DNA of 64,000 nt. Source: Dongia rigui. Lineage in GTDB: Bacteria; Pseudomonadota; Alphaproteobacteria; Dongiales; Dongiaceae. The translations under genes were made by a program, and so were the position numbers. Positions within the stretch are counted from its first letter, which is position 1. Every line of letters begins with the position of its first letter. The DNA lies in assembly GCF_034044635.1 (NCBI RefSeq), contig NZ_JAXCLX010000004.1:310001-374000 (forward strand), read 5' to 3'. Positions 2,060 to 17,693 of the stretch are shown in pieces. The notes beneath the pieces were generated by a model. That model ran no database searches. It was not told the origin of the DNA and saw only the letters and a program-made list of their open reading frames with translations.

Positions 2060-3799
2060 ATGACCTTGCAAGCGACACCGACCACGAATTCCAGTCTGAA
2101 GCATCGCCGCAGCAGTTTCGACACGCTGTGGGAAGCCTTGGATTATGCCGCTGGCGGCGCCACGGGGTTGAATTTCTACACGGCCAAGGGCGACCTTGCC
2201 ACTGTGCTGAGCTATGCCGAACTGCGCGACCGGGCGCGGGACATGGCGCAGCGACTCGCCGGCCTGGGCTTGGAGCGCGGCTCACGCATTGTGCTCATCG
2301 CGGACACCGATCCCGATTTCGTGGTTGCCTTCTTCGCCACGCAATATGCGGGATTGTTGCCCGTACCCGTTGCCATTCCGACCAGCCTCGGCGGCCGCGA
2401 GGCCTATGTCGCCCAATTGCGCCAGCAATTGTCGGGCTGCGATGCGAGCGTGGCACTGGGTCCGCCCTCATTGATGGGCTTTCTCACCGAGGCTGCCGAA
2501 GGCCTGCCGCATCTGCGCCTGGTCGGGACATTGGCTGATCTTGCAGCTATGCCGGCCAACACAGGCACACCGCGCCCGTTTGCTGCCGATGAGCCGAGCT
2601 ATCTGCAGTTTTCTTCCGGATCGACGCGCTTCCCGAAGGGGATCGAGATTCATCAGCGGGTTTTGATGGCCAATGCCTATGCCATCACCCACCATGGCCT
2701 CAACATCGTCGAAAGTGATCGCTGCACATCCTGGCTGCCCTTTTATCACGACATGGGCCTGGTGGGGTTCCTGCTGGTGCCGGCGACGGGCCAGGTTTCC
2801 GTCGATTACGTCGCCACGCGCGACTTTGCGCGCCGCCCGCTGACGTGGCTGAAGCTCATTTCAGAGAACCACAGCACGCTTTCCTATTCACCGACCTTCG
2901 GTTACGAGCTCTGCGTCAAGCGCATGCGCGGCGAGAGTGACTTTGCCGGTAACCTCTCGTCTTGGCGTGGCGCCGGCATCGGCGGCGACATGGTGCAGGA
3001 CGGCATCCTCCGCCGCTTCAGCGAGACCTTCTCGCCATTCGGCTTCCAGCATAAGGCGTTCGTGCCGAGCTACGGCATGGCAGAAACGACGCTGGCCATG
3101 AGCTTTGCGCCGCTCGACCGTGAATACCGCGTCGACCATATCGATCGCGCCGGCCTGGAAAATCAGGAAGCCAACCCCGTGGCCCCGGGCAAGTCCGCCC
3201 GCAGCCTGGTCGCCTGCGGGCCGGCCTTGGCACAGCATCGCTTCGAGGTGCGTGACGAGACGGGCAGCGCCTTGCCCGAACGCCGCATCGGCCGCATCTT
3301 CTTCCAGGGTCCCAGTGTCATGGCGGGCTATTTCCGCCAGCCGGAACTGACGGCCGAGGCGTTGAGCGCCGATGGCTGGCTGGATACCGGCGATCTTGGC
3401 TATCTCATCGACGGCGAGATCGTCATTACGGGCCGCGCCAAGGATCTCATCATCATCAACGGCCGCAACATCTGGCCGCAGGATCTCGAATGGACGGCGG
3501 AATCTCTGCCGGATCTGCGCCGGGGCGATGCCGCCGCCTTCTCCGTGCTGGGCGAGAACGATGAAGAGCAGGTCGTTGTCCTGATCCAGTGCCGCATCAG
3601 CGACCTTGCCGCCCGCACCAAGCTGAAACAGGACATTGCCGGCCTGCTGCAGCGCTCGATGGGTGTGGAGGCGCGCGTTGAATTGGTGCCGCCCAAAGGC
3701 CTGCCGCAGACTTCGTCCGGAAAACTCTCGCGCGCCAAGGCCAAGGCCAATTACCTCCAAGGTCTCTACGCGGACGCCGACCTTGGCATCAGCGCCTAA
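2060..3799 (+). CDS. aasR: Fatty acyl-AMP ligase / acyl-ACP synthetase
   Basis: A 579-residue ANL-superfamily adenylating enzyme. The P-loop-like motif is FSSGSTRFPKG (about residue 190), followed by SYGMAETT, the aspartate of DTGDLG, the hinge GRAKDLIIINGRNIWPQD and a C-terminal SGKLSRAKAK with the catalytic lysine. The N-terminal layout and hinge resemble fatty acyl-AMP ligases rather than acyl-CoA synthetases, so the acyl chain is probably handed to a carrier protein. An ACP and serine palmitoyltransferase follow 1.2 kb downstream, as in the Caulobacter ceramide locus, where a homologous synthetase (AasR) is thought to charge AcpR. It probably supplies acyl-ACP for long-chain-base formation. 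Substrate chain length cannot be read from the sequence. Confidence 0.85.
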   Translation: MTLQATPTTNSSLKHRRSSFDTLWEALDYAAGGATGLNFYTAKGDLATVLSYAELRDRARDMAQRLAGLGLERGSRIVLIADTDPDFVVAFFATQYAGLLPVPVAIPTSLGGREAYVAQLRQQLSGCDASVALGPPSLMGFLTEAAEGLPHLRLVGTLADLAAMPANTGTPRPFAADEPSYLQFSSGSTRFPKGIEIHQRVLMANAYAITHHGLNIVESDRCTSWLPFYHDMGLVGFLLVPATGQVSVDYVATRDFARRPLTWLKLISENHSTLSYSPTFGYELCVKRMRGESDFAGNLSSWRGAGIGGDMVQDGILRRFSETFSPFGFQHKAFVPSYGMAETTLAMSFAPLDREYRVDHIDRAGLENQEANPVAPGKSARSLVACGPALAQHRFEVRDETGSALPERRIGRIFFQGPSVMAGYFRQPELTAEALSADGWLDTGDLGYLIDGEIVITGRAKDLIIINGRNIWPQDLEWTAESLPDLRRGDAAAFSVLGENDEEQVVVLIQCRISDLAARTKLKQDIAGLLQRSMGVEARVELVPPKGLPQTSSGKLSRAKAKANYLQGLYADADLGISA

Positions 3800-3820
3800 T
3801 TCGCTGGCGATGGCGCGCTG

Positions 3821-4768
3821 ATGGCAGGGTTGGTTGTCGTCACCGGCGCCACCGGCTTCGTCGGCGCGGCGATCCTACGCCACCTGGCGCATCAGGGCTG
3901 GCGCATCCGCATCCTGACCCGGCGCATGCCGCAGGACGCGCTGATGCCGGACCATCCGATCGAGGTCGTCCTCGGCGACATGGGCGACCGCGCCAGCCTG
4001 GAACAATTGGTCCGTGGTGCCGATGCCATCGTGCATTGTGCCGGCCTGACCAAGGCGCTGACACCCATCGAATTCTTCGACGTCAACGAGGGCGGCACGG
4101 TCCGGCTGCTGGAAGCGGCCCAAAAGGCAGCGCCCCAGGCGCGCCTAGTCCATATCTCGTCATTGGCAGCGCGCGAGCCTGGGCTTTCGCCCTATGCCGC
4201 CAGCAAACGGGCGGGCGAAGACAAGCTGCCGGCGCTCGCTGGCGCCCGCGACTGGGTCGCGTTGCGACCGCCCGCAGTCTATGGCCCCGGCGATGTGGCG
4301 CTCCTGCCGCTCTTCAAGGCCGCGAAACTTGGCCTCCTCGCCTACCCAGCCAGCCCTGGCAGCCGTGCCTCGACACTGCACGTGGCCGACCTGGCTTCGG
4401 CGGTCGCCACGCTACTCTCGACCGAGGTCTGGTCCGAGCGCGTGATCGAACTCGATGACGAGCACCCCAACGGCCACGACTGGGCTGAAATTAACCATGC
4501 TCTTGGCGAATGCTTCGGAAATCGCCTCTGGGCCGTGCGCCTCCCCCGTCCCTGGATGACCGGCATCGCCGGTGCGGTGACCGTCGTATCGCGGTTGAGC
4601 GGAACCCCTCAAATCCTGTCTCTCGACAAGATTTCAGAGCTTTACCACCCCGATTGGGCCTCCTCCGGCGTGAGACTGAGCACACTCCTTCCTTGGCGGC
4701 CCACCTTTGCCTTGCGCGAGGGTTTCGCGGACACGCTCAAATGGTACCGCGCCGAGGCTCTTCTTTAA
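3821..4768 (+). CDS. cerR: NAD(P)-dependent epimerase-type SDR, probable ceramide reductase
   Basis: A 315-residue extended short-chain dehydrogenase. The nucleotide-binding GATGFVG is at residues 8-14 and the catalytic YAASK in the first half follows the HISSLAAREPG segment. It starts 21 bases after the acyl-AMP ligase and precedes the ACP-SPT pair. In Caulobacter the equivalent gene beside spt (CerR) reduces the 3-keto group of the long-chain base or of the N-acylated product, so the same step is inferred here. The Rossmann strand begins at residue 3, so no N-terminal signal peptide is visible. A moderately hydrophobic stretch near residues 248-262 could contact membrane. Confidence 0.8.
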   Translation: MAGLVVVTGATGFVGAAILRHLAHQGWRIRILTRRMPQDALMPDHPIEVVLGDMGDRASLEQLVRGADAIVHCAGLTKALTPIEFFDVNEGGTVRLLEAAQKAAPQARLVHISSLAAREPGLSPYAASKRAGEDKLPALAGARDWVALRPPAVYGPGDVALLPLFKAAKLGLLAYPASPGSRASTLHVADLASAVATLLSTEVWSERVIELDDEHPNGHDWAEINHALGECFGNRLWAVRLPRPWMTGIAGAVTVVSRLSGTPQILSLDKISELYHPDWASSGVRLSTLLPWRPTFALREGFADTLKWYRAEALL

Positions 4769-4805
4769 GACGAGATTCGTGGCCTAATCAGCTGGAATCG
4801 CTGAC

Positions 4806-4824
4806 TTGTTACATTCGGTAACAA
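4806..4824. promoter_or_regulatory. Inverted repeat upstream of the ACP-SPT genes
   Basis: TTGTTAC and GTAACAA form a perfect 7-base inverted repeat with a 5-base spacer (ATTCG). It lies in the 184-base gap between cerR and the ACP gene. The size and symmetry fit an operator for a dimeric regulator. No bound protein can be named from the sequence. Confidence 0.35.
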
Positions 4825-4952
4825 TTCGTCATTTAACTTTAGCCGCGAAATTTACGACAACCTCATCAGGCACACCGGCGTGAGTCGGTTTCCTGCCTAA
4901 ACGGTTCCCAACGTTAACAGATTCGACAACAAGAACAGATTGGTCCGGCATC

Positions 4953-5228
4953 GTGACGGCGAGTGCAGCGCAGCTTTCAAATTTTACTCTCGAGGTTGTC
5001 GTGGCGGATATCGCCACCGCGCTGGTGCCGTTCAAGAAGTCCGATATCGAGATCACCGCGGCGACGGATATCGCCCGTGACCTCAACATGGATTCGCTGG
5101 CGGTCATGGATTTGCTGATGGAACTCGAAGACAAATTCGACGTCTCCATCCCGCTCAACATGGTGCCAGAGATTGCCACGGTCGGGCAGCTTGCCCAGAC
5201 CGTGATTGATTCGAAGAAGGGGGCGTAA
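4953..5228 (+). CDS. acpR: Acyl carrier protein of the sphingolipid locus
   Basis: A 91-residue acidic four-helix carrier protein. Ser48 in the NMDSLAVMD motif is the expected 4'-phosphopantetheine site, preceded by the usual TDIARDL helix. It lies one base upstream of serine palmitoyltransferase, so the two are certainly cotranscribed. The dedicated ACP, separate from a fatty-acid-synthesis acpP context, suggests that SPT uses acyl-ACP rather than acyl-CoA, as proposed for Caulobacter AcpR. An internal ATG within the first residues could also be considered, but the full-length start keeps the whole first helix. Confidence 0.9.
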   Translation: MTASAAQLSNFTLEVVVADIATALVPFKKSDIEITAATDIARDLNMDSLAVMDLLMELEDKFDVSIPLNMVPEIATVGQLAQTVIDSKKGA

Positions 5229-5229
5229 G

Positions 5230-6450
5230 ATGGGGTTGATGGATCGTTTCAAGGCGCAGCGCGAGTTGCATGCCGCCGTCAAGACCTGCGGTGCCGATCC
5301 GTTCGGCGTGAAGATGGACAAGATCGTCTCCTCGACCGAGGCGATGATCGAAGGCCGCCGCACAATCCTCTGCGGTTCCAACAACTATCTCGGCTTCACC
5401 TTCGACGCCGACTGCATCGAGGCCGCCAAGAAGGCGCTTGAGACGAGTGGTACGGGTACCACCGGCTCGCGCATTGCCAACGGTTCGTACAACGACCATA
5501 AGGCGCTTGAGGCCGATCTCGCCGACTTCTACGGCAAGAAGCATTGCATGGTTTTCACCACCGGCTATCAGGCCAATCTCGGCGCCATCTCGACGCTCGC
5601 CGGTCCGGATGATTTTCTGATCATCGACGCCGACAGCCATGCCAGCATCTATGACGCCTGCAAGCTGGGTTCGGCGACCGTGATCCGCTTCAAGCACAAC
5701 GACCCGACCGATCTCGACAAGCGCCTCGCGCGCCTCGCCGATCAGCCCGGCAACAAGATCGTCGTTGTTGAAGGCATCTATTCGATGCTGGGCGACCACG
5801 CGCCGCTGAAGGAATTCGTCGCCGTCACCAAGAAGCACAATGCCTATATCCTGGTCGATGAGGCTCATTCGATGGGCGTCCTCGGCAAGACCGGCCAAGG
5901 CTTGGTCGAGCATGACGATGTGCTGGAAGAAGTCGACTTCATCACCGGTACCTTCTCGAAGAGCATGGGCGCTGTGGGTGGCTTCCTGGTTTCGAACATG
6001 GACGATTTCGACGTCCTGCGCGTTGCCTGCCGCCCCTACATGTTCACGGCTTCGCTGCCGCCCGCCACGATCGCCTCGGTGCGGACGTCGCTGGCAAAGC
6101 TTCGCGCCAACCCGGGTCTGATGGAAAAGCTGTGGCAGAACGTCGACACGCTTTATCACGGCGCTCAGAATGCCGGCTTCACCGTCGGCAAGCAGAAGGG
6201 GCCGGTGGTCGCCATTCACCTCACCGATCCGGCTCTCGCCGCCCGCGCCTGGCGCGCGCTCCTGCTGAATGGTGTCTACGTCAATTTGGCTTTGCCGCCG
6301 GCGACACCGTCGGGCACTGCCCTGCTCCGCTGCTCGGTTTCCGCCGCGCACAGCACCGAGCAGCTTGAGCGTGTCGTGTCGATCCTGGCCAATGTCGGCC
6401 GCGATCTGGGCCTGCTGAAGTCGCCCGCCCACGCGGTGGCCGCTGAATAA
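5230..6450 (+). CDS. spt: Serine palmitoyltransferase (alpha-oxoamine synthase)
   Basis: A 406-residue fold-type I PLP enzyme that condenses serine with an acyl thioester to 3-ketosphinganine, the first committed step of sphingolipid synthesis. Lys244 in TFSKSMGAVGG is the PLP lysine, His137 in DADSHASI stacks on the cofactor, and Asp210 is in DEAHSMG. The Gly-rich segment SGTGTTGSR is at residues 73-81. The ATG at 5230 lies one base after the ACP stop and has AAGGGGG as ribosome-binding site. Other members of the family (glycine C-acetyltransferase, AONS, ALA synthase) are possible on fold alone. The neighbouring ACP, acyl-AMP ligase and CerR make SPT by far the best choice. Confidence 0.92.
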   Translation: MGLMDRFKAQRELHAAVKTCGADPFGVKMDKIVSSTEAMIEGRRTILCGSNNYLGFTFDADCIEAAKKALETSGTGTTGSRIANGSYNDHKALEADLADFYGKKHCMVFTTGYQANLGAISTLAGPDDFLIIDADSHASIYDACKLGSATVIRFKHNDPTDLDKRLARLADQPGNKIVVVEGIYSMLGDHAPLKEFVAVTKKHNAYILVDEAHSMGVLGKTGQGLVEHDDVLEEVDFITGTFSKSMGAVGGFLVSNMDDFDVLRVACRPYMFTASLPPATIASVRTSLAKLRANPGLMEKLWQNVDTLYHGAQNAGFTVGKQKGPVVAIHLTDPALAARAWRALLLNGVYVNLALPPATPSGTALLRCSVSAAHSTEQLERVVSILANVGRDLGLLKSPAHAVAAE

Positions 6451-6484
6451 GTTTCTCGAGTAGGTAACCTAAGACCTGTCTCAT

Positions 6485-6514
6485 AGGGCCGATGCGAAAG
6501 CATCGGCCCTTTTC
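6485..6514. terminator. Terminator after spt
   Basis: A perfect 11-base stem (AGGGCCGATGC with GCATCGGCCCT) closed by a GAAA tetraloop and followed by TTTT. It lies between the convergent spt and the DinB-fold gene and could serve both directions. Confidence 0.9.
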
Positions 6515-6517
6515 TCG

Positions 6518-7093
6518 TCAGCGGCCATCTAGGCCGCGCCACACATCTTCCTCTGTCCAGCCGAGTGCCACCATATCGTCAGCGCGGAACTTGGCATCGC
6601 CTGCACAAAAGAATTCGTCCAGCTGCGGCGGCTTCACCGGGCTGCCGGCCAGCATCGCGTGGATCTGGCCGCGATGATGGATCTGGTGTTCGAAGAGATG
6701 CAGCAGAACCCGATCGGCACGGTCGAACTGTACATGTGATGCGCGGTGCATCCGAATCTCTGCGGCGAGCTTTTCGTCGTCGAGCCCGCTGCACAGCGCG
6801 ATCAGCCGGCGATCGACGCCCCGTTGCGCAGCATCAAAGTCCCCGAAGTTAGGAAACGGTATCTCATTCTCCCACGCCTTCGGTCCCAGCGTGCCGCCTT
6901 CCAAGGCATCGACATAAAACCAGTCGACGACAAGGATATGGTTATAGGTGGCAACGATCGACGGGAAGAAACTGGTACGCTCGGCGGTGAACTCGGCTGC
7001 CGAAAGCCCTTTGCACGCCTGCAGGAGGCGATGATTGGCCCAGGCATTGTTCCGCGCCATGGCCAAAAAATAGAGAGCTGCCCCAGTCGCCAT
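6518..7093 (-). CDS. DinB-fold (four-helix metal-binding) protein
   Basis: A 191-residue protein of the DinB/DUF664-like four-helix-bundle superfamily. An early NNAWANHRLL helix is followed by NHILVVDWFY (first metal histidine) and a late HQIHHRGQIHAML motif giving the usual His triad. The ATG at 7093 has GGAGGAAGG upstream; longer frames have no such site. Members are often thiol-dependent transferases or hydrolases, but the substrate cannot be predicted. It is the last gene of the minus-strand group containing the ceramide kinase and may be cotranscribed, 23 bases after the Tam41-like gene. Confidence 0.8.
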   Translation of the reverse strand: MATGAALYFLAMARNNAWANHRLLQACKGLSAAEFTAERTSFFPSIVATYNHILVVDWFYVDALEGGTLGPKAWENEIPFPNFGDFDAAQRGVDRRLIALCSGLDDEKLAAEIRMHRASHVQFDRADRVLLHLFEHQIHHRGQIHAMLAGSPVKPPQLDEFFCAGDAKFRADDMVALGWTEEDVWRGLDGR

Positions 7094-7116
7094 GCCTTCC
7101 TCCAATCCCGCTTGCA

Positions 7117-8028
7117 CTATCGAAACGCGCCCCGGCGATAAAGCTTCCACGCCAGGGCCGGTGCCGCCAGCAAGGGATGGCGCCGCTGCCAATCGCTGAC
7201 CGGCACGACGACGCCGGAATGACGCCGCACTTTCCACAACACATAGTCGACGGCACCGTCGAAGGTGAAGGCAGCCTTGATCAGGCGCAAGTAATTGAGC
7301 GTCTTTCCCAACAAACGACGCCCCTGCCAATTTGCCATCGCCGCTTCGCGCGAGATGCCGTTTGCCGCCCCTTCCGCCAACAGGAGGTTACCGATCGCGC
7401 GATACCGCTCTTCGTCGGCAGCAACGATCGCCAGCGCGCGGTCACTCTTCTCAGAGCGCAGCTCGGCCGCATAGGTGGCCTTGAAGCCCTCGCGCCAGAC
7501 CGTCAACGGCTCCCCCGCCGCAGATCCTTCAAGAAGCGGCGCTGCATTCCGGAACATCGTGCGGCATGCTTGCATCAAGGCGGTCGTCAGTGCCGCATCC
7601 GTGCCCGCATCGCGACACCAGATGAGGCGCGTGGGCTGGCAGAATCGCGCCCAGATCGAGACATTCTGCGCGGTCGGGGCACAAGCATCGGCAAATTGCC
7701 GCAATGATATGACGGCGTATTTCGCTCTCAGTTGCAGACCTTGCCACGGCAATTCGACGTAGAAGACATTTGGCGGCAGAAGGTCGTTGGCAAGAGCCAG
7801 CAGCCGCTTGTCATATGCCGCCCGGTAATCGTCGACGATGACGTAGAAGTCGAGCAGCGCATCACCCAGCAACTGGTCTGGCTGCCGCAGGCACGAACCA
7901 TAGAACAGGACCGCAATCGCCGCCGTGCCGTGCCGCGCCCGGCAATGCTCCGCCATGGCGCGCGCAGCCGCGGCAACCGGTGTGTGCAATTCGGCGCCGA
8001 TCAGCGCAGCGAGTGCAGTCGGTGCCAT
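7117..8028 (-). CDS. Tam41-like nucleotidyltransferase
   Basis: A 303-residue soluble protein. Near the N-terminus it has FYGSC (residues 42-46), then LLDFYVIVDD (residues 58-67, with Asp60, Asp66 and Asp67 as likely metal ligands), KYAVIS (103-108) and SIWARFCQPTRLIW. That series resembles the mitochondrial CDP-diacylglycerol synthase Tam41, which has GSG, DFI.AVDDP, KYGVIS and a W..LY..GRL.KP motif. It lies 22 bases after the lipid kinase gene and downstream of a CDP-alcohol phosphotransferase. A CTP-dependent activation of a phospholipid, for example ceramide 1-phosphate, is a reasonable hypothesis. It is not established by sequence. Confidence 0.7.
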   Translation of the reverse strand: MAPTALAALIGAELHTPVAAAARAMAEHCRARHGTAAIAVLFYGSCLRQPDQLLGDALLDFYVIVDDYRAAYDKRLLALANDLLPPNVFYVELPWQGLQLRAKYAVISLRQFADACAPTAQNVSIWARFCQPTRLIWCRDAGTDAALTTALMQACRTMFRNAAPLLEGSAAGEPLTVWREGFKATYAAELRSEKSDRALAIVAADEERYRAIGNLLLAEGAANGISREAAMANWQGRRLLGKTLNYLRLIKAAFTFDGAVDYVLWKVRRHSGVVVPVSDWQRRHPLLAAPALAWKLYRRGAFR

Positions 8029-8050: not shown

Positions 8051-9007
8051 TCAGAACCGGTGGAAACGCATGACCGGCCCGGCCGAGATCACGATGTGGC
8101 CGTCCGCCGGTGGTTGGAAACATTCGCCATCAATCATCAGCGGGCTCTTGATATCAAGCTCCAGCTTTTCCATGCGCCGGCTAAGATAGCCGGCCTCCGT
8201 CATCCAGGCCTTCGGCTTGCCGCGCAGGACCGAAAGTGCCGCGGCGGCAAAGCGACGTGGCGGCGAGTCAATCGTCGTCAACTGCAGGCGTCCCGGCCCC
8301 TCGCCCCAGAAAGGAGCCACACCCGGCAGGACCGAATTGAGCGTCGAACCGAGGAACATGAAGCAATCGCGACGCTCAGGTTTTCCGTCGATGGTGAGGC
8401 CCAGGCTCTCGCCGTGAAAGCCGGAGCGCGGACCGGGTCCGAACATCAGAATTTTCAAAATCGACCAGGCGATTCCAAGCTTGGCAGCAAAGACTTGTTT
8501 TGCGCCCAGCGAATGAATATCGCGGCGTACAAGCTGGGTGCCCTGATAGAAACCGACCCCACCGACCAGGAAACCACGTTCAATGACCCGCCCGTCGCCG
8601 AAATCGACCGACAGCACGGGGCGTTCCAGAACGTCACCCTCGCGGCCCGCCTCGACCTGCGCGACCAGTCGCTGAAGCCCCTCGGCAGGCAAACCTGGTT
8701 GCCCGACTTCATGGGCGATCACATTGGTCATCCCGGCCGAAAGCAGGCTGAGGCACGGTTGCTTGGCAAATGGGCTGTTGTTGAGCAGCGCGGATACGGT
8801 TGCAAGAACCGTCCCGTCGCCGCCGCTGATGACCAGATGGGTGACCCCAGCCGCCGCCATCTCAGCAAGGCAACCCGGCAATTCGTTGATGTGGTGGAAT
8901 GAGTGGTGCTTGACCTGCGGGTGCTCCGCCAGCAACTGGTGGATTTCACGCATCGACACCTTGTTGCGCTTGCTGTGGGCGTTGCTGATGACACCAATTC
9001 GTACCAT
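8051..9007 (-). CDS. cpgB: Diacylglycerol-kinase-family lipid kinase, probable ceramide kinase
   Basis: A 318-residue DAGK catalytic-domain protein. The nucleotide-binding SGGDGT motif is at residues 61-66, preceded by the basic HSKRNK turn (11-16). A GMTN motif and the C-terminal beta sandwich (IDGECF) are also present. In Caulobacter a bacterial ceramide kinase (CpgB) of this family lies in the sphingolipid locus. The same position between a CDP-alcohol phosphotransferase and a nucleotidyltransferase supports that function here. It starts 4 bases after the end of the upstream phosphotransferase gene. A diacylglycerol or sphingoid-base kinase cannot be excluded from the fold. Confidence 0.75.
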   Translation of the reverse strand: MVRIGVISNAHSKRNKVSMREIHQLLAEHPQVKHHSFHHINELPGCLAEMAAAGVTHLVISGGDGTVLATVSALLNNSPFAKQPCLSLLSAGMTNVIAHEVGQPGLPAEGLQRLVAQVEAGREGDVLERPVLSVDFGDGRVIERGFLVGGVGFYQGTQLVRRDIHSLGAKQVFAAKLGIAWSILKILMFGPGPRSGFHGESLGLTIDGKPERRDCFMFLGSTLNSVLPGVAPFWGEGPGRLQLTTIDSPPRRFAAAALSVLRGKPKAWMTEAGYLSRRMEKLELDIKSPLMIDGECFQPPADGHIVISAGPVMRFHRF

Positions 9008-10118: not shown

Positions 10119-10301
10119 GATATTTTATCGTCTTTAGCGCCTGTGAGAGGCTTTGTTAGCGCCGATTGGGTAACGCCGTCTAGCCAAATCCGACGCTTCG
10201 ACACATTGCTGTTAGAAGCTTGACCAGACGAGATAATCGGCCCAGATAAGGCACCCGGAAAGGGCGGCCGGCCGACCAGCATATCCTGCAAGGAATACCC
10301 T
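10119..10301. promoter_or_regulatory. Divergent promoter region of the sphingolipid headgroup genes
   Basis: 183 bases between the minus-strand phosphotransferase/kinase group and the plus-strand phosphatase/LptFG-like group. It must carry promoters in both directions. GTTA and TAAC half-sites near 10155-10173 recall the inverted repeat upstream of the ACP gene, but the match is weak. Confidence 0.4.
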
Positions 10302-11270: not shown

Positions 11271-11313
11271 TGTATACCCGCGCCGCGATTTGGCTTGAGG
11301 CAGCAGCGTTTTC

Positions 11314-12522
11314 ATGAAGTTTCTGCGCATCGACATTTATATTTTGAAACGGGTCGCATTGCCCCTGCTGGCGACCGTTGGGATCGCCATGGCGGCCCTG
11401 CTCCTCGAGCGCCTGATCCGCTTGCTCGACCTTTTCGCCAACCGCGGCGGACCGCTCAACATCGTTCTCAAGATGCTGGCCAATCTGGTACCGCATTATC
11501 TCGGCATAGCCGTTCCAGCAGCCCTTTTTGTTGGCGTGCTCTATGCCAGCATGCGCCTCTCCTCGGACAGCGAACTCGACGCCATGCGCGCGAGCGGCCT
11601 CTCGCTTCGGCGCTTGCTGATGCCGATTCTGGCCCTTTCAGTCGTGCTGGCGATCGTCAGTGCCTATCTCATCGGCTTTCTGCAGCCCTATACCCGGTTT
11701 GCCTATCGCGCTCTGGTTCACCTGGTCGTCGAAACGGCTTGGGACTCAGCCATCGAGCGCGGTGCCTTTTTCAGCGGGTTTGGTGGCAAGACGATCCTGA
11801 TCGGCGACATTTCCGAAGGCGGCAGCAAGCTCTCGCAGATATTCGTCAAGGAAGTGGACGAGAACGGCCAGGATCTGGTTACCACGGCAGAAAGCGGTCA
11901 GCTGGAGCGCAATGCAGACCTCTCTCTCGTCCTCACCTTGCACAATGGCGTCCGCACCGAAACCACGCCAGGTACGAATCAATCCAAGGCCGTGGTCTTT
12001 ACCGAACTCGAACTGCCGATGGACACCGTGGCCCCCGAGCCTTTTAGAAATCGCGGCGAGCGGGAAAGCGAGCTCGATTTCTTCGAGCTCATTCACGCCT
12101 ATTTCAATACCCCGACCGGCCTTCACATCGAAGACATCAAGGGCGAATTGAACAGCCGGCTGGTGAGAACATTATCGATCATCTTCCTGCCGCTGCTGGC
12201 TATGCCAATCGGTGTTTCTTCCCGCCGCACCTCCAAGGGCGTCCGCATGCTGGTCGGTATCCTGTTCCTGGTCGCATATTTCCAGATTCTGCAGTTCGGC
12301 CGGGATGCCGTCGGCAGCGGCATAACCGGGTCTGCCATTGCGTTGTGGCTGCCATTCGTGGTCTTCGGCTGTGTCAGCACGTGGCTGTTCTATCTCGCCA
12401 ATTCCCGCCCAGGCGCCGATCCCCTGGCGCATGTCTTTGAATCGATTTCCGACGGCTCCGGCTGGATCTGGAATCGCGTGCAAAGGATCATGCCGCGTCG
12501 TTCGCAAGGGGCGGCGGAATGA
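11314..12522 (+). CDS. LptF-like YjgP/YjgQ-family permease
   Basis: A 402-residue protein with the LptF/LptG layout. Three N-terminal helices (from residue 14) are followed by a periplasmic beta domain of about 150 residues and three C-terminal helices. The conserved SSDSELDAMRASGLS coupling segment is at about residues 88-102. It overlaps the next gene by 4 bases (ATGA). In LPS transport LptFG work with the ATPase LptB and with LptC, LptA and LptD. None of those lies here, and the pair is embedded among sphingolipid genes. Either this is the cell's only LptFG, or it is a paralogue for ceramide lipids. Confidence 0.85.
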   Translation: MKFLRIDIYILKRVALPLLATVGIAMAALLLERLIRLLDLFANRGGPLNIVLKMLANLVPHYLGIAVPAALFVGVLYASMRLSSDSELDAMRASGLSLRRLLMPILALSVVLAIVSAYLIGFLQPYTRFAYRALVHLVVETAWDSAIERGAFFSGFGGKTILIGDISEGGSKLSQIFVKEVDENGQDLVTTAESGQLERNADLSLVLTLHNGVRTETTPGTNQSKAVVFTELELPMDTVAPEPFRNRGERESELDFFELIHAYFNTPTGLHIEDIKGELNSRLVRTLSIIFLPLLAMPIGVSSRRTSKGVRMLVGILFLVAYFQILQFGRDAVGSGITGSAIALWLPFVVFGCVSTWLFYLANSRPGADPLAHVFESISDGSGWIWNRVQRIMPRRSQGAAE

Positions 12523-13610
12523 ACACGTTTGCCCGCTACGTCCTCAAGAGCTTTCTGTGGCAGTTTCTCCTGCTTCTGACGGGCTTCACAGCTTTGCTGC
12601 AGCTGTTTGATCTACTCAACAACAGCGCCGACATCCTTGAAGACCATATGGGCCAGATGAGTGCCGTGTTCGAATATGCGGCGCTGCGCTTGCCGGAGAT
12701 CATGTCGTTCCTCGTTCCCTTTGCCGTCCTCATGGCCGCCCTCGTGACCCTCGGCAAGATGGAGCGGGACAACGAGATCATGGCCTACAAGGCTGCGGGC
12801 GCGCCCTATTTCACGGTGCTATGGGCCTTCCTGCCAGCCGTTGGAATCGTGGCGATCCTCCATTTCTTCCTGGCGGATCGCATTGTGCCGCTGTCGATTC
12901 AAGCGCTGATACAACAGGACCTGTCGGTCGAACGCACCAAGTCGAAGAACGAGGCGAAGGACGAGCCCCTCTTCGTGCAGGAAGGTAAGTCGGTCGTGGA
13001 GGCTGGCGCCGTCGGCCAGGACGGTACCGTGCTCAGTCACCTGCGCATTTACGAGCGCGCCGACAGTGGCAAGATCATTCGGCAGGTCTTCGCCAACGAT
13101 GCCCGCTATGACGCCGCCGCCGGTCTGTGGCATCTAAGTGATGTCTGGACGACAGTGGTTCCCGAAGGTGACGCGGCGCAAACCAAGCACACCCAGAACT
13201 GGGATTGGCAGACGCAGCTGACACCGGCCGAATTTTCGGACCTGGTCGAAAAGCCTCAGGCGATGACCCTGGGGAAGATCTGGGGTTTCATCTCGTCCAC
13301 ACAAGTCGGGGTGCGGCCGACTTATTTCTACGAAACCTGGCTGCAAAAACGCATCGCGCTGCCGGTCAGTTCGATCCTGATGATCCTCCTCGCCGCACCT
13401 GTCGCCCATTCCCTGCATCGGCGCGAACGCGGCCTCGCCATGGGCATGACGGTCGGTTTCGGTCTGGGTTTCCTCTATTTCCTCACCGACGGCCTCGTCC
13501 TGTCGCTGGGTGAATCTGGTGCCGTTCCGCCGTTCCTGGCGGCATGGCTGCCGATCCTTTTGTTCGCCGCCATTGGCGGCGCCTGGCTCATCAAGCAAGA
13601 AGGCTATTGA
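12519..13610 (+). CDS. LptG-like YjgP/YjgQ-family permease
   Basis: A 363-residue partner of the preceding protein. N-terminal helices begin at residue 8. The coupling segment MERDNEIMAYKAAGAP, at about residues 85-100, would contact an LptB-type ATPase. A periplasmic beta domain follows, then three C-terminal helices. It starts in ATGA overlap with the LptF-like gene and ends 3 bases before the second CDP-alcohol phosphotransferase, so translation of the set is tightly linked. That linkage to lipid headgroup enzymes, with no LPS genes nearby, argues for a role in moving the sphingolipid out of the inner membrane. Confidence 0.85.
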   Translation: MNTFARYVLKSFLWQFLLLLTGFTALLQLFDLLNNSADILEDHMGQMSAVFEYAALRLPEIMSFLVPFAVLMAALVTLGKMERDNEIMAYKAAGAPYFTVLWAFLPAVGIVAILHFFLADRIVPLSIQALIQQDLSVERTKSKNEAKDEPLFVQEGKSVVEAGAVGQDGTVLSHLRIYERADSGKIIRQVFANDARYDAAAGLWHLSDVWTTVVPEGDAAQTKHTQNWDWQTQLTPAEFSDLVEKPQAMTLGKIWGFISSTQVGVRPTYFYETWLQKRIALPVSSILMILLAAPVAHSLHRRERGLAMGMTVGFGLGFLYFLTDGLVLSLGESGAVPPFLAAWLPILLFAAIGGAWLIKQEGY

Positions 13611-13613
13611 GCC

Positions 13614-14825
13614 ATGAAATTGTGGATCGACGCCGGGCGCAGCAGCGCCGAGCGCGTCTTTGGCATGGACCTGATCGAGCGCCATCTCAAAGCTGTGCGG
13701 CATCAAAAGATCGACCTCAGCGAAGTCATCATCGATGTGGGCGCCGGACCAGTTCCGGACTGGGTCGCCGAGCCACGCCTGGCATGCCCCGTGCGCGTTG
13801 TTACTGGCGAGGGTACCTGCGGTGACCGCCTGCGCGCCGCGTTGGCGGCAAACGAACCGCTGCTGGCAACCGACGCCGCGAGCCTCGCGGATGGCCGGCT
13901 CTACCGCTATCTGGCCGACCGGTCTGGCAGTTGCGCCGTACGCGCCAACAAAGCGACCATCGCGCGGATCGAACCGGTGGACGCATCGCGCATCCTCGTG
14001 GCGCCGACCCTTGATGCGGTCACAGCCCCCCTCACCGAAATCCGGCAAGACGACTTCCCCGCCTTCGTTGCCAAGTTGCGCCGCTCTCTGCCCTTTTACT
14101 TGTTCTCGGTGACCAATGCCGCCGAGCGGAACAGCGTCGAGAGGTTCCTATTCTGGTCGAACTACAAGGGCTCGACCGATTTCTTCACGAAGTACGTTTA
14201 TCCGCCGCTGGTCTGGGCCATGGTGCCACCCTTGGCGCGGGCGCGTATCCATCCCAACACGGTTACCATCGTCAGCATCATCCTCACCGTCCTCGCCGTA
14301 CCGCTCTTTGCGACCGGCCATTTCTGGTGGGGGTTTGCCTGCGCCTATGGCATGAGCGTACTGGATTCAGTCGACGGCAAGCTGGCGCGGCTGACCTTCA
14401 CGGATTCGGCCATCGGCAACGTTCTCGACCATGGCCTCGATATCGTTCATCCGCCGTTCTGGTATTTCGGCTGGGCCATCGGGCTGCTGGGCGGGTGGGC
14501 CGCCGCCGATTTGAGCCAGCCACTTTGGCAGGCAGCCTGGGTCATGCTCGCGCTCTACATCCTCGACCGGCTCATTCTCGCGGTCTACCGCGCCAAGTTT
14601 AAGCGCGGCCTGCACACCCACGCCGCCATGGACGCCATTGTCCGGACCTTCATTTCCCGCCGAAACATCAATTTGCCGCTTTTTACTGTGGCTTATGCGG
14701 TGGGATGGGGGCTCGAGGCGTTCTATTTCATCGTTCTGTGGCAGGCGCTTACCTGCCTTTACCATGGCGGCAGAACGATCTGGATCCTCGCAACCTTCCA
14801 CCCGGCACCGGCCGAACCGGTTTGA
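13614..14825 (+). CDS. CDP-alcohol phosphotransferase with N-terminal extension (copy 2)
   Basis: A 403-residue enzyme. The signature DxxDGxxAR-x8-GxxxDxxxD is at residues 251-276 (Asp251, Asp254, Asp272, Asp276), and several membrane helices lie from about residue 195 to the end. Residues 1-165 are soluble and include a weak nucleotidyltransferase-like start (WIDAGRSSAERVFG, residues 4-17) that lacks the usual glycine-rich loop. It follows the LptG-like gene by 3 bases. With copy 1 at 9012-10118 it could add successive phosphoglycerate units or use a different donor. Caulobacter makes ceramide mono- and diphosphoglycerate, which would need two such steps. Confidence 0.8.
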   Translation: MKLWIDAGRSSAERVFGMDLIERHLKAVRHQKIDLSEVIIDVGAGPVPDWVAEPRLACPVRVVTGEGTCGDRLRAALAANEPLLATDAASLADGRLYRYLADRSGSCAVRANKATIARIEPVDASRILVAPTLDAVTAPLTEIRQDDFPAFVAKLRRSLPFYLFSVTNAAERNSVERFLFWSNYKGSTDFFTKYVYPPLVWAMVPPLARARIHPNTVTIVSIILTVLAVPLFATGHFWWGFACAYGMSVLDSVDGKLARLTFTDSAIGNVLDHGLDIVHPPFWYFGWAIGLLGGWAAADLSQPLWQAAWVMLALYILDRLILAVYRAKFKRGLHTHAAMDAIVRTFISRRNINLPLFTVAYAVGWGLEAFYFIVLWQALTCLYHGGRTIWILATFHPAPAEPV

Positions 14826-14917
14826 TGCCGCGGCCAAGGCGCGCACGGCCATCGTTTGCTTGCCCTAAAACCTTGATCCAACTAGATTACCGCCCAGCTA
14901 CACCCCAGCCAAAATTG

Positions 14918-15715
14918 ATGAGCGAGTCGACCGCCATGCTTCGTTTCGGCTTCTGGAAGAACCGGACCCATAATCTTGATCGCATGAATCTCGCGGACCT
15001 CGTGCGCGCTTTTGCAACCTATCCCTCCGTCCATGCCTATCTCGGCGTGGCTGCAGTGAGCTTCTATTTCGTGTGGCACTGGTACGAAAGCCCGCTGCCG
15101 TTGTTGGCCGCCATCGGCCTCACAATTCTGATCTATCCGCTGGTCTGGTACGTGCTTCACCGCTGGGTGCTCCACAGCCAGTTTCTCTACAAATCGCCGC
15201 TGACCGCCAAGGTGTGGAAGCGGATCCATTTCGACCATCACCAGGATCCGCATAACCTCGTTGTATTGTTCGGCGCGCTCTACACGACGCTGCCGACAAT
15301 CGCCCTCGTTACCATGCCGATCGGCTACGCCGTCGGCGGCCTTGCCGGTGCCGCAATGGCTTTTGCCAGTGGCTTGCTCACCACCTGCTTCTACGAGTTC
15401 TGCCACTGCGTGCAGCATCTCAACACAACGCCAAAGAATCCCTTCTTGAAGCGCATCAAGCAGCAGCATTTGTGGCACCACTTCCACAATGAGCAGGGCA
15501 ATTACGGCATTACCAATTTCTTTTGGGACAAACTCGGCAAGACCTACTACGCCAAGGCGAGCGCGATGCCGCGGAGCCCAACAGTCCACAACATCGGCTA
15601 CACCGCCGAAATGGCAGAGCGCTATCCCTGGGTGGCGCAGTTATCGAACGACACCCGCGGCGACAACAATCCGCGCCGCTTCCGCAGCGGGTCGACGAAC
15701 AACCCGGCGGAATAA
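14918..15715 (+). CDS. Fatty acid hydroxylase / sterol desaturase family protein
   Basis: A 265-residue membrane di-iron enzyme with the eight-histidine pattern of the family: HRWVLHS, HFDHHQDPHN, HCVQHLN and HLWHHFHNE. Two hydrophobic segments lie before the first motif and two between the second and third. In eukaryotes this family hydroxylates sphingolipid long-chain bases or N-acyl chains. Here the gene lies 34 bases upstream of the ceramide synthase, so hydroxylation of ceramide is the natural inference. The ATG at 14918 (MSEST) is preferred; a later one at 14936 is possible. The position hydroxylated cannot be predicted. Confidence 0.82.
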   Translation: MSESTAMLRFGFWKNRTHNLDRMNLADLVRAFATYPSVHAYLGVAAVSFYFVWHWYESPLPLLAAIGLTILIYPLVWYVLHRWVLHSQFLYKSPLTAKVWKRIHFDHHQDPHNLVVLFGALYTTLPTIALVTMPIGYAVGGLAGAAMAFASGLLTTCFYEFCHCVQHLNTTPKNPFLKRIKQQHLWHHFHNEQGNYGITNFFWDKLGKTYYAKASAMPRSPTVHNIGYTAEMAERYPWVAQLSNDTRGDNNPRRFRSGSTNNPAE

Positions 15716-15749
15716 CGCGTTCCAGAATCATAGATGAAAGCGACAGACC

Positions 15750-16886
15750 ATGGCTGCGATCGAGGTCGTTCCGGTCACCGATAAGGCTGGGCTGAAGGCG
15801 TTCATCGCACTGCCAAAACGGCTCTATTCCGGCAGCAAAGGCTATGTCGCGCCGCTCGACATGGAGCGGGCTGAGGTCCTTTCGCCGACCAAGAACCCCT
15901 ATTTCACCCATGCCAAGGCGCAGCTGTTTATCGCCAAGCGCGACGGCAAGGTTGTCGGCCGCGTGTCGGCGCAAATCTGCCAATTGGAACAGAAGCTGCG
16001 CCCCGGTACCGGCCATTTCGGCTGGATCGATGCCGAGGATGACCCGGCGATCTACCAGGCACTCGTCGACGCTGCAGCGGCCTGGCTGCGCCAACAGGGT
16101 TCGACCCGCATGGTCGGTCCCTTGAGCTTCTGCACCAATGAAGAGACCGGCCTATTGGTGGACGGTTTCGACAGCCTGCCCATGTTGATGATGCCCTATC
16201 ACGCACCTTACGCAGGGCGGCATGTTGAGGCCGCTGGTTTTGCCAAGCTCAAGGACGTCGTCGCCTACGATCTCGACAAGACCGCCTACAAGCCGGTCGG
16301 CTCGTCGCGGATGCTGGAAAAGCTGCAGGCGGACGGCACTATCCGCATGCGTGGCCTCGATATGAAGAACTACACCCGCGATCTCGGCATTATCCTCGAC
16401 ATCTTCAACGATGCCTGGGCCGATAATTGGGGCATGATCCCCTTCACGGCGGACGAGATCGCTGCAGCGGCCAAATCGATGAAGCCGCTCATCGACCCCA
16501 ATCTGGTCGTCATCGCCGAAGTTAAAGGCGAAGCCGCCGGCATGTTGGTTTGTCTCCCCAACCTCATGGAGGCGATCCGCGATTTCGACGGCAGCCTGTT
16601 GCCGTTCAATGTCCTCAAACTGCTGTGGCGCCTGAAGGCTAACAAGCTGAAGACCAGCCGCATTCCCTTGATGGGCATTCGCCGCAAGCACCACGGCTCC
16701 GTGCTGGGAGCCACTTTGCTGCCGCTGATGTTCGATCGCCTGAAAGCGCCGTTCCTGAAGCGTGGCCTTGAACGCGTCGAAATGTCCTGGATTCTCGAAG
16801 ACAATATGCCGATGCGCCGCGTCATCGAAGGTGTCGGTGGCAAGGTCTACAAGACCTACCGCATCTACGAGAAATCATTGGCCTGA
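15750..16886 (+). CDS. bcerS: GNAT-type bacterial ceramide synthase
   Basis: A 378-residue protein that closely fits the bacterial ceramide synthase described in Caulobacter, a GNAT-fold N-acyltransferase unrelated to eukaryotic ceramide synthases. It opens with FIALPKRLYSG and DMERAEVLSP, has a first GNAT-like half (AQLFIAKRDGKVVGRVSAQI, about residues 55-74), then PLSFCTNEETGLLVDGFD and a second half (residues 200-375) with DIFNDAWADNWGMIPF. No signal peptide or clear membrane helix is present, consistent with a cytoplasmic enzyme. It would N-acylate the SPT product. It sits between the hydroxylase and the nucleotidyltransferase with tight spacing (6 bases to the next gene). Confidence 0.85.
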   Translation: MAAIEVVPVTDKAGLKAFIALPKRLYSGSKGYVAPLDMERAEVLSPTKNPYFTHAKAQLFIAKRDGKVVGRVSAQICQLEQKLRPGTGHFGWIDAEDDPAIYQALVDAAAAWLRQQGSTRMVGPLSFCTNEETGLLVDGFDSLPMLMMPYHAPYAGRHVEAAGFAKLKDVVAYDLDKTAYKPVGSSRMLEKLQADGTIRMRGLDMKNYTRDLGIILDIFNDAWADNWGMIPFTADEIAAAAKSMKPLIDPNLVVIAEVKGEAAGMLVCLPNLMEAIRDFDGSLLPFNVLKLLWRLKANKLKTSRIPLMGIRRKHHGSVLGATLLPLMFDRLKAPFLKRGLERVEMSWILEDNMPMRRVIEGVGGKVYKTYRIYEKSLA

Positions 16887-16892
16887 ACGGCC

Positions 16893-17693
16893 ATGTCGCC
16901 AGCGCCCTTCAACGCCCTGATCCTGGCCGGCAATCGTCGCGAAGGCGACAGCGTCGCCGTGCTGGCTGGCGTCACCCACAAGGCGTTGGCACCGATCAAC
17001 GGCGTGCCGATGCTGCTGCGCCTCTATCGCACCTTGCGTTCCGTCGAGGGCGTCGCCGACATCCATGTCTGCATCGATGACGGCGCCCTGCTGGATACGG
17101 TGCCGGAACTGGCGGCCGCGCGCGCCAGCGGCGCCATTAAGGTGGTGGCACCCGAAGCCAGCCCCGCAGCCAGCCTCGGTGCCGCACTCGACATCATTGG
17201 CTTGCAGCATCCGCTCCTCACAACCACTGCCGACCATCCGCTTTTGACGGCGGCCATGGTCTCCCACATGCTGAAAAATGCGCCGGCCGATGCGGAACTG
17301 GCGGTCGGTCTCGCCGAGGCGGAGACGGTGACGGCGGTCTATCCCGAAGCCATTCGGACATTCTATCGCTTCAAAGGCCGACGCTTCAGCGGCTGCAACC
17401 TGTTTCTCGCGCGCGACAGCAATGCCCGCAAGGTCGCCAGCTATTGGCAGCGCATGGAGCGGCATCGGAAGAAACCCTGGCGGCTGGTCCTGGAAGTGGG
17501 GCCATTGGCGCTGCTGCGGATGGCCGTTGGTCGGCTCAGCCTAGACGATGCCTTTCAGCATGTCTCGCGCTTGACTGGCGCCCGCATTCGTCCGGTCCTG
17601 ATGCCCTTCGCCGAGGCGCCGATCGATGTCGACAAGCCCGCCGATTTCGAACTGGTCACCGAAATTCTCCGCCGCCGCGAAGGCGCCGCCTAA
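16893..17693 (+). CDS. cpgD: MobA/GT-A-like nucleotidyltransferase, possible phosphoglycerate cytidylyltransferase
   Basis: A 266-residue single-domain nucleotidyltransferase. The N-terminal ALILAGNRREGD resembles the LxAGxGxR loop, Lys30 is in THKALAPINGVPML, and the metal-binding aspartate is Asp114 in TTADHPLL. Another acidic site, PIDVDKPADFEL, lies near the end. Caulobacter CpgD is a nucleotidyltransferase that makes CDP-glycerate for ceramide phosphoglycerate. A homologue directly behind the ceramide synthase, in a locus with CDP-alcohol phosphotransferases, fits that role well. CTP versus another nucleotide, and glycerate versus another phosphorylated acceptor, cannot be told from the sequence. 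Confidence 0.68.
   Translation: MSPAPFNALILAGNRREGDSVAVLAGVTHKALAPINGVPMLLRLYRTLRSVEGVADIHVCIDDGALLDTVPELAAARASGAIKVVAPEASPAASLGAALDIIGLQHPLLTTTADHPLLTAAMVSHMLKNAPADAELAVGLAEAETVTAVYPEAIRTFYRFKGRRFSGCNLFLARDSNARKVASYWQRMERHRKKPWRLVLEVGPLALLRMAVGRLSLDDAFQHVSRLTGARIRPVLMPFAEAPIDVDKPADFELVTEILRRREGAA

What the first reader, a model, noticed from the sequence alone, without database searches (positions are those of the whole stretch)
2060..17693. Apparently complete anionic sphingolipid (ceramide-phosphoglycerate type) locus with its own export candidates
The sequence shows acyl-AMP ligase, CerR-type SDR, ACP, SPT, a DAGK-family kinase, a GNAT ceramide synthase and a nucleotidyltransferase. It also shows two CDP-alcohol phosphotransferases, a Tam41-like protein, a di-iron hydroxylase, a metallophosphatase and a permease pair in 15.6 kb. 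In Caulobacter the related genes make ceramide and ceramide (di)phosphoglycerate. The combination with permeases and a hydroxylase in one locus suggests synthesis, tailoring and export as one unit.
Basis: partly seen in the sequence, partly recalled or inferred. Interest (0 to 1): 0.85.

Follow-up and report, generated by a model that had tools for sequence, protein, structure and literature searches.

The report
Sphingolipid cluster owning the LPS exporter
This bacterium (genus Dongia) appears to make no lipopolysaccharide, and its only copy of the membrane pump pair that normally exports lipopolysaccharide sits inside a gene cluster for a charged sphingolipid, which suggests that the sphingolipid has taken over both the place of lipopolysaccharide and its transport machine.

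Summary
Window 2060-17693 holds a Caulobacter-type phosphosphingolipid cluster: AasR, CerR, AcpR, Spt, Tam41-fold CpgC, kinase CpgB, two CDP-alcohol phosphotransferases, metallophosphatase, LptF/LptG, Scs7-like hydroxylase, CerS and CpgD. That kind of cluster is published. The genome around it is the news. The 99.75% complete Dongia genome has one LptF and one LptG, both here, and no LpxC or LpxB, yet keeps LptA, B, C and D. Of 289 class genomes, 34 have CpgC: all 14 with LpxC carry two LptFG pairs; of 20 without, 18 carry one pair, one three copies, one (82% complete) none. LptF and LptG trees split 100/100: LpxC-less genomes keep only the sphingolipid-linked clade. In 14 of 21 such genomes pepA adjoins lptD with lptF1-lptG1 gone. 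Two LptG positions that touch lipid A phosphate and core in enterobacteria lost their charge in this clade. Best reading: the Lpt bridge passed from LPS to an anionic sphingolipid. No lipid was measured.

The parts
2060..3799 (+). AasR-type fatty acyl-AMP/ACP ligase
   Evidence: PF00501; NF006624 fatty acyl-AMP ligase 807 bits, above cut-off 600
3821..4768 (+). CerR-type SDR, ketosphinganine/ketoceramide reductase candidate
   Evidence: PF01370, YxxxK motif; place in the aasR-cerR-acpR-spt block
4953..5228 (+). AcpR, dedicated acyl carrier protein
   Evidence: PF00550, DSL motif
5230..6450 (+). Serine palmitoyltransferase Spt
   Evidence: NF047599 660 bits, above cut-off 500; PLP lysine motif TFSK. 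Start chosen by eye
6518..7093 (-). DinB-family protein, probably unrelated passenger
   Evidence: PF05163; found in 6 of 144 loci compared, all Dongia or a close relative. Start chosen by eye
7117..8028 (-). CpgC-like, Tam41-fold cytidylyltransferase; proposed CDP-ceramide synthase
   Evidence: AlphaFold2 pLDDT 89.8; Foldseek best hits Tam41 7ecd, 6ig4, 6ig2; 23 invariant columns in an alignment of 34 sequences
8051..9007 (-). CpgB-like ceramide kinase
   Evidence: PF00781, GGDG at residue 62
9012..10118 (-). CpgA-like CDP-alcohol phosphotransferase (DIPPS-like)
   Evidence: PF01066; catalytic motif intact
10302..11270 (+). Metallophosphatase, in the place of CC_1158
   Evidence: PF00149 with its metal motifs; no solved relative at E 0.001
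11314..12522 (+). LptF2, only LptF of the genome
   Evidence: PF03739, TIGR04407; single copy; clade 2 of the LptF tree
12519..13610 (+). LptG2, only LptG of the genome
   Evidence: PF03739, TIGR04408; single copy; clade 2 of the LptG tree
13614..14825 (+). CdpX, second CDP-alcohol phosphotransferase with an N-terminal cytidylyltransferase-like domain
   Evidence: PF01066; model pLDDT 91.6; best PDB match IPCT-DIPPS 4mnd E 4.8e-11; in 14 of 144 loci compared
14918..15715 (+). Scs7/FA2H-like fatty acid hydroxylase, proposed N-acyl hydroxylase of ceramide
   Evidence: PF04116; PDB best hit yeast SCS7 E 1.9e-11; four His boxes. Start chosen by homologue length; the ORF opens at 14705
15750..16886 (+). 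CerS, bacterial GNAT-type ceramide synthase
   Evidence: weak PF00583; homologues in 37 of 60 genomes searched and in 82 of 144 loci compared
16893..17693 (+). CpgD-like CTP:phosphoglycerate cytidylyltransferase
   Evidence: PF12804; R15, K30 and D114 kept in 31 of 31 sequences aligned

Best explanation
The locus makes a hydroxylated anionic ceramide phospholipid of the ceramide-(di)phosphoglycerate kind, and its LptF2/LptG2 form the inner-membrane pump that moves this lipid across the envelope with the genome's LptB, LptC, LptA and LptD. It does so in place of LPS, which the organism no longer makes. Steps: AasR loads AcpR; Spt condenses acyl-AcpR with serine; CerS N-acylates and CerR reduces; the Scs7-like enzyme hydroxylates the N-acyl chain (inferred from fold family and place); CpgB phosphorylates ceramide; CpgC activates ceramide-1-phosphate with CTP to CDP-ceramide (inferred from the Tam41 fold); one DIPPS-like enzyme (CpgA or CdpX) joins CDP-ceramide to a glycerate acceptor; CpgD makes CDP-glycerate; the other DIPPS-like enzyme adds it; the phosphatase trims. 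LptB2F2G2C then extracts the lipid into LptA and LptD (inferred from retention, linkage, phylogeny and residue changes). None of these steps was shown here in this organism; the enzyme roles follow Caulobacter work and family membership.
For: One LptFG pair in the genome, inside this cluster. No LpxC and no LpxB here or in the three other genomes of the genus sampled. LptD present; KdsD/KpsF, lptC, lptA and lptB adjacent and intact. Copy number: 14 of 14 CpgC+ LpxC+ genomes have at least 4 LptF/G domains, 18 of 20 CpgC+ LpxC- have exactly 2; among CpgC- LpxC+ genomes 2 of 229 reach 4 (read off, where at most six candidates per genome were scored; Fisher p 6e-21). LptF and LptG trees: every pair of an LpxC-less genome put in groups with the sphingolipid-linked pairs, 100/100 (split kept with two more genomes). 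Of 35 genomes without LpxC and LpxB, LptFG is kept in 19 of 21 with CerS and 2 of 14 without (p 8e-6). pepA adjoins lptD without lptF1G1 in 14 of 21 LpxC-less genomes examined. In family f66, two LPS-less genomes with ceramide genes but no CpgC have no LptFG, LptC or LptD, while their family member with CpgC keeps all three. Residues: the positions of enterobacterial LptG K40 and K41 are basic in 18 and 19 of 20 LptG1, but in 1 and 3 of 35 LptG2; the position of LptF K30 is basic in 0 of 21 LptF1 and 33 of 33 LptF2.
Against: No lipid data. Absence of LPS rests on LpxC and LpxB only; LpxA, LpxD, LpxH/I, LpxK and WaaA were not searched. A KdsD/KpsF homologue is kept, so Kdo may still be made for something. 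G012 and G145 are LPS-less with LptFG and CerS but no CpgC match, so the cargo there need not be a phosphoglycerate lipid. G058 and G275 lack LpxC but have LpxB matches (105 and 31 bits, over the cut-off of 22.6 but far below the 255-352 bits of most others). G166 and G224 keep LptFG without LpxC, LpxB or CerS (230 and 450 contigs). G244 has a third LptFG-like gene, divergent and nearer to LptF1 (25% identity), and its pair is not on the contig of its CpgC. Seven of 21 genomes show no pepA in the stretch fetched around lptD, so nothing can be said of their slot. The 14 CerS-less genomes include G071, which has CpgC but is 82% complete and may just miss genes. Genomes share ancestry, so p values overstate independence, and transfer of whole clusters could mimic repeated loss. 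The residue picture is mixed: LptG K34 and K62 and LptF K317 and K322 are rarely or never basic in either clade, LptG R136 falls in a gap, LptF R263 is basic in half of each, and LptG2 has more basic residues at R133 (15 of 35 against 0 of 20).
Confidence: 0.75

Rival explanations
1. The cluster makes CPG-type lipid as read, but LptF2/LptG2 carry some other envelope lipid (a glycosphingolipid, hopanoid or polyisoprenoid-linked glycan), and the sphingolipid reaches the outer membrane by another route.
For: G012 and G145 keep a clade-2 LptG (the only one of their pair put in the tree) beside CerS without a CpgC match, so the pair is not strictly tied to phosphoglycerate genes. Two ABC exporters, a third CDP-alcohol phosphotransferase and an Elm1-family protein lie about 3-11 kb left of the cluster.
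Against: In 13 of the 14 LpxC+ CpgC+ genomes a clade-2 pair lies in one stretch with CpgC, CerS or the metallophosphatase (labels, gene orders); the fourteenth (G227) is on a short contig. Two f66 genomes with ceramide genes but no CpgC have no LptFG, LptC or LptD found.
Confidence: 0.15
2. Dongia still makes an unusual lipid A through replaced or unrecognised Lpx enzymes, and LptF2/LptG2 have simply become its LPS permeases.
For: KdsD/KpsF, LptA, LptB, LptC and LptD are all kept. Nine LpxC- genomes elsewhere in the class do have a strong LpxB, so a missing LpxC alone does not prove absence of lipid A.
Against: LpxC and LpxB are both missing in all four sampled genomes of the genus (99.75-100% complete); the same double absence recurs in 18 CpgC+ genomes of 11 families, these four included. 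LptG2 lost basic residues at the core and 4'-phosphate contact.
Confidence: 0.07
3. An ordinary Caulobacter-like cluster with duplicated LptF/LptG, nothing beyond a new member.
For: Gene set and block order match the published C. crescentus description closely (PMC11324152).
Against: Here the pair is not a duplicate: no other LptF/LptG was found, and the slot beside lptD is empty.
Confidence: 0.03

Closest known systems
C. crescentus phosphosphingolipid cluster CC_1168-CC_1152 (CCNA_01210 and neighbours)
   Same: aasR-cerR-acpR-spt, cpgC-cpgB-cpgA, phosphoesterase, LptF2-LptG2, CerS and CpgD in like order, as described in PMC11324152 (sections 4, 8 part 1, 9, 13 and passages read)
   Different: By that paper, Caulobacter also has LptC2, a potential flippase and CC_1153 in the cluster, and the pair is a second copy beside LPS. 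Here: one LptC in the genome, away from the cluster (its second hit is the LptA gene); no LpxC or LpxB; CdpX and an Scs7-like hydroxylase are inside. The paper's hydroxylase is a DesA-type gene elsewhere (CC_0202).
Sphingomonas, naturally without lipid A
   Same: LPS-less Alphaproteobacteria with sphingolipids in the outer membrane (PMC10964400 whole text; PMC11324152 introduction)
   Different: Known for glycosphingolipids and for Sphingomonadales; PMC7179689 (passages seen) calls sphingolipids in Alphaproteobacteria apparently restricted to that order. Dongia and Aquibaculum are Rhodospirillales in the NCBI taxonomy.
LptB2FG LPS transporter
   Same: LptF and LptG score above the curated cut-offs TIGR04407 and TIGR04408
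   Different: Separate clade; no LpxC or LpxB in the genome; changed cargo-contact residues
Tam41 CDP-DAG synthase
   Same: Fold
   Different: 12-13% identity; substrate proposed to be ceramide-1-phosphate
IPCT-DIPPS of Archaeoglobus
   Same: Architecture of CdpX: cytidylyltransferase-like domain plus CDP-alcohol phosphotransferase
   Different: 13% identity; the N-terminal domain looks degenerate (judged by eye)

Membership tests
Caulobacter-type CPG phosphosphingolipid cluster | Five ceramide genes aasR, cerR, acpR, spt, cerS | tested here: met
Caulobacter-type CPG phosphosphingolipid cluster | Headgroup genes: Tam41-like CpgC, kinase CpgB, CDP-alcohol transferase CpgA, cytidylyltransferase CpgD | tested here: met
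   One-to-one orthology with C. crescentus proteins was not tested by sequence: none was fetched
Caulobacter-type CPG phosphosphingolipid cluster | CC_1153 (CofC-like nucleotidyltransferase), needed for CPG2 in Caulobacter | tested here: inconclusive
   No separate gene of that kind seen in the cluster; the N-terminal domain of CdpX is cytidylyltransferase-like. The rest of the genome was not searched for it
Caulobacter-type CPG phosphosphingolipid cluster | Product: ceramide phosphoglycerate and diphosphoglycerate | not testable with these tools
   needs lipidomics
LptF/LptG permease pair | LptF and LptG score above family cut-offs and sit as a pair | tested here: met
LptF/LptG permease pair | Cargo is LPS | tested here: inconclusive
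   Points against: no LpxC and no LpxB in the genome. Indirect; LpxA, LpxD and LpxK not searched, no lipid measured
Tam41 | Tam41 fold with CTP-type nucleotidyltransferase core | tested here: met
   invariant YGS and D60 in 34 sequences
Tam41 | CDP-diacylglycerol synthase activity | not testable with these tools
   no assay; different lipid proposed
CDP-alcohol phosphotransferase (DIPPS-like) | D-x2-DG-x2-AR-x8-G-x3-D-x3-D | tested here: met
   CpgA and CdpX
Scs7/FA2H fatty acid hydroxylase | FA_hydroxylase domain with His boxes, nearest solved relative Scs7 | tested here: met
   position of hydroxylation not testable
Serine palmitoyltransferase | NCBIfam equivalog NF047599 above cut-off | tested here: met
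   660 bits against 500

The most novel reading that the evidence does not exclude
The whole Lpt bridge has changed cargo. In Dongia and in members of nine other alphaproteobacterial families, LPS synthesis (LpxC and LpxB) and the LPS-type permeases LptF1/LptG1 are gone, the latter often missing cleanly from between pepA and lptD, while the sphingolipid-cluster permeases LptF2/LptG2 with the old LptC, LptD and presumably LptA and LptB now build an outer leaflet of anionic sphingolipid. The two permease clades are then cargo-specific adaptors for one shared bridge.
Probability: 0.7. Interest if true: 0.87.

Novelty: new variant of a known kind. Interest (0 to 1): 0.74.

Why it matters
PMC11324152 (2024) states that it is not known how sphingolipids get from the inner to the outer membrane, and proposes the second LptC/F/G set without testing it. 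Naturally LPS-less genomes that keep only that kind of LptF/LptG are a natural experiment which points to the answer. They name cultivated organisms (Dongia mobilis, Aquibaculum arenosum) in which the pump can be tested without LPS in the way. They also show that curated models name these genes 'LPS export' in a genome with no LpxC or LpxB, and suggest that LPS-less, sphingolipid-based outer membranes are more widespread than Sphingomonadales.

Tried and rejected
Hydroxylase as an oddity of this locus: rejected; homologues lie in 48 of the 144 loci compared (some genomes fetched twice), next to CerS in 45 of the 48. LptF/LptG as a recent duplicate: rejected by copy count and tree. CdpX as the C. 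crescentus CC_1153: judged unlikely, since the paper's list of proteins with membrane-helix plots leaves CC_1153 out and CdpX has long helices in its model; not settled, no Caulobacter sequence was fetched. DinB as part of the pathway: rejected, 6 of 144 loci, all Dongia or a close relative. All LpxC- genomes as LPS-less: rejected after LpxB matched in 11 of 46; the strict set is 35. Chemotaxonomic support (2-hydroxy without 3-hydroxy fatty acids in Dongia): searched, nothing usable held. Papers on natural loss of LptF/G or of LPS in these groups: none found among the titles and abstracts listed, apart from the mention of Sphingomonas in PMC10964400 and PMC11324152; one search listed 15 of 65 papers; the library is partial. 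Zik et al. 2022 (PMC9393093) is not held and is known to me only through other papers. VIA-align was not available. Right flank (aminotransferase, molybdopterin oxidoreductase) judged unrelated.


Full report
WHAT IS THERE. The window lies at G000:C4:310001-374000 of a 4.66 Mb genome, 99.75% complete. The genus is Dongia: G165 is called same genus by the tool, and its locus is 100% identical over 35 ORFs to D. mobilis CGMCC 1.7660. Three blocks make up the finding. Forward, 2060-6450: AasR, CerR, AcpR, Spt. Reverse, 10118-7117: CpgA, CpgB, CpgC, followed by a DinB gene. Forward, 10302-17693: metallophosphatase, LptF, LptG, CdpX, hydroxylase, CerS, CpgD. L041, L043, L045 and D. deserti L047 keep this order, the DinB gene apart, which was not found in L045 and L047.

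WHAT EACH PART IS. Spt and AasR pass curated cut-offs. CpgC has no Pfam or NCBIfam hit, but its model (pLDDT 89.8) matches Tam41 with CTP first (E 1.2e-7, TM 0.52). A profile search of solved sequences gave only a weak nucleotidyltransferase hit (E 0.026). CpgB carries GGDG, the motif noted for the Caulobacter ceramide kinase (PMC10331486, passages). CpgA and CdpX keep the CDP-alcohol transferase motif; CdpX (pLDDT 91.6) matches the fused archaeal IPCT-DIPPS first. CpgD keeps R15, K30 and D114 in 31 of 31 aligned sequences; PMC12275187 (parts 1 and 2 of 4 read) names R16, K26 and D112 as conserved active residues, and I take these to correspond, without a direct alignment. The hydroxylase's only significant solved relative is yeast SCS7, a ceramide fatty acid hydroxylase.

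KNOWN AND NEW. The cluster is of the kind described for C. crescentus CC_1168-CC_1152 (PMC11324152; sections 4, 8 part 1, 9, 13 and passages read). That paper reports second copies of LptC, LptF and LptG there, proposes them for sphingolipid transport, did not test it, and says the transport route is unknown. It also suggests an NDP-activated ceramide made by CC_1161 and an unknown enzyme that would join it to glycerate. A 2026 preprint (PMC13228409, passages) still calls the CpgC mechanism unidentified. The Tam41 fold and the second DIPPS-like enzyme CdpX fit those gaps; this is inference.

THE GENOME CONTEXT. LptF/LptG occurs once each in the genome, in this cluster. LpxC is absent, LpxB is absent, and both are absent in the three other genomes of the genus sampled. 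LptD is present. KdsD/KpsF, LptC, LptA and LptB lie in a row (the LptC name rests). LptC has two hits; the second lies in the LptA gene next to it.

THE COMPARATIVE TEST. In 289 genomes drawn from the class, CpgC matches in 34 and LpxC in 243. LpxC is missing in 20 of 34 CpgC+ and 26 of 255 CpgC- genomes (Fisher p 6e-10). Among the 34, 13 of 14 with LpxC have four LptF/G domains and the other (G027) five, with fragments; of the 20 without, 18 have two, G071 (82% complete) none, G244 three. Among CpgC- LpxC+ genomes 2 of 229 have four (G022, G246, where at most six candidates per genome were scored). Of the 46 LpxC- genomes, 11 have an LpxB match (two of them, G058 and G275, much lower than most), leaving 35 without both. 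Of those 35, 21 have CerS and 19 of these keep LptFG and LptD; 14 lack CerS (G071 among them) and 2 keep LptFG, 3 LptD. Restricted to genomes at least 90% complete: 19 of 21 against 1 of 7. The 18 CpgC+ genomes in the strict set fall in 11 families; the 17 of them with LptFG in 10.

PHYLOGENY. LptF domains (54) and LptG domains (55) each split in two with 100/100 support. One side holds all domains from LpxC-less genomes and all sphingolipid-linked ones from LPS-bearing genomes. The other holds the unlinked domains of the same LPS-bearing genomes and those of seven CpgC- genomes. One pair I had left unassigned (G227, short contig) falls on the sphingolipid side. Of G012 and G145 only LptG was put in, and the third copy of G244 was left out. 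Rows of LpxC-less genomes are spread over their side: at least 3 (LptF) and 4 (LptG) label changes are forced by strongly supported branches. Adding LptF of G028 (family f29) and LptF and LptG of G203 (f93), which fall on the LPS side, kept the split in quick trees.

THE EMPTY SLOT. In 12 of 12 LPS-bearing CpgC+ genomes examined (two others were not fetched), lptF1-lptG1 is followed by lptD or surA, and pepA was found before it in 8. In 14 of 21 LpxC-less genomes examined (12 of 19 in the strict set) pepA stands directly before lptD, with no lptF/lptG between; in the other seven no pepA was found in the stretch. In family f93 both states occur: G203 has LpxC and the full slot, G093 lacks LpxC and has the empty slot.

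A NATURAL CONTROL. G066 and G280 (family f66) lack LpxC and LpxB and have AasR, CerR, AcpR, Spt, phosphatase and CerS in a row, but they are not among the CpgC matches, and no CpgA, CpgB, CpgC, CpgD or LptFG match lies in the 20 kb fetched. They have no LptFG, LptD or LptC (G280 is one of the two unmatched genomes that one search does not list by name). Their family member G186 has CpgC, CpgA and CdpX and keeps LptFG, LptD and LptC. Here retention follows the headgroup genes, not ceramide alone. G012 and G145 are the counter-case: LptFG and CerS, no CpgC match.

RESIDUES. PMC6744409 (passages) gives LptG K40 as contacting the 4'-phosphate and K41 the inner core of LPS; that the numbers fit the PDB chains used here was checked by letter. 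Those positions are basic in 18 and 19 of 20 LptG1 and in 1 and 3 of 35 LptG2. The LptF K30 position is basic in 0 of 21 LptF1 and 33 of 33 LptF2; in Acinetobacter LptF, R30 contacts an LPS phosphate and R30A gave no viable cells (PMC10794137, passages; that K30 and R30 are the same position is my reading). Not all sites agree: LptG K34 is acidic in most of both clades, K62, LptF K317 and K322 are seldom basic in either, and R133 is basic in 15 of 35 LptG2 and 0 of 20 LptG1. The LptF R292 column differs too (1 of 21 against 32 of 33), possibly through an alignment shift.

LIMITS. Nothing here measures a lipid. Only LpxC and LpxB stand for LPS synthesis. Genomes are related, so counts are not independent trials. 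Orthology with Caulobacter proteins is by domain and order as the paper describes them, since no Caulobacter sequence was fetched. LptA and LptB were looked at in the own genome only.

VERDICT. Its larger meaning is that it holds the only Lpt permeases of an organism that appears to have given up LPS.

Noticed in passing
L185 (G000:C4:296001-312000), left of the window: A third CDP-alcohol phosphotransferase (6198-7493, +; 48% identical to CdpX) follows an Elm1-family protein (4936-6108); two ABC exporters (9673-11511 +, 11460-13163 -) lie between them and the cluster. Possible flippase, or a second phosphodiester-linked surface molecule.
   Followed up: partly
L186:3900-7386 (G000:C1): A KdsD/KpsF homologue heads the lptC-lptA-lptB row in a genome without LpxC and LpxB; what uses Kdo, if it is made, is open.
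   Followed up: partly
G062, G134 (also G019, G151): LpxB and LptFG present but no LpxC match; G062 and G134 are 99-100% complete. Divergent or replaced LpxC?
   Followed up: no
L055, L071 (Nitrospirales MAGs NPIRA04, NPIRA01): Sphingolipid headgroup cluster with hydroxylase, CerS, CpgD, CpgC, CpgB and two CpgA-like genes outside Proteobacteria; LptF/G matches there are only about 20% identical.
   Followed up: no
L224, L225 (G066, G280): Ceramide gene row in LPS-less genomes without LptFG, LptC or LptD found; how their ceramide reaches the outer membrane is open.
   Followed up: partly
G026:C1:771349-773568, G158:C1:1479504-1481729, G186:C12:98372-100663, G275:C2:576599-578845: LptF and LptG share one open frame of about 760-795 residues in some genomes, in both clades, perhaps a fused permease.
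   Followed up: no
window 17828-23779: Class III aminotransferase, kept next to cpgD in L041, L042, L043 and L045, then a molybdopterin oxidoreductase with Fe-S and DmsC/NrfD-type subunits; look unrelated.
   Followed up: no
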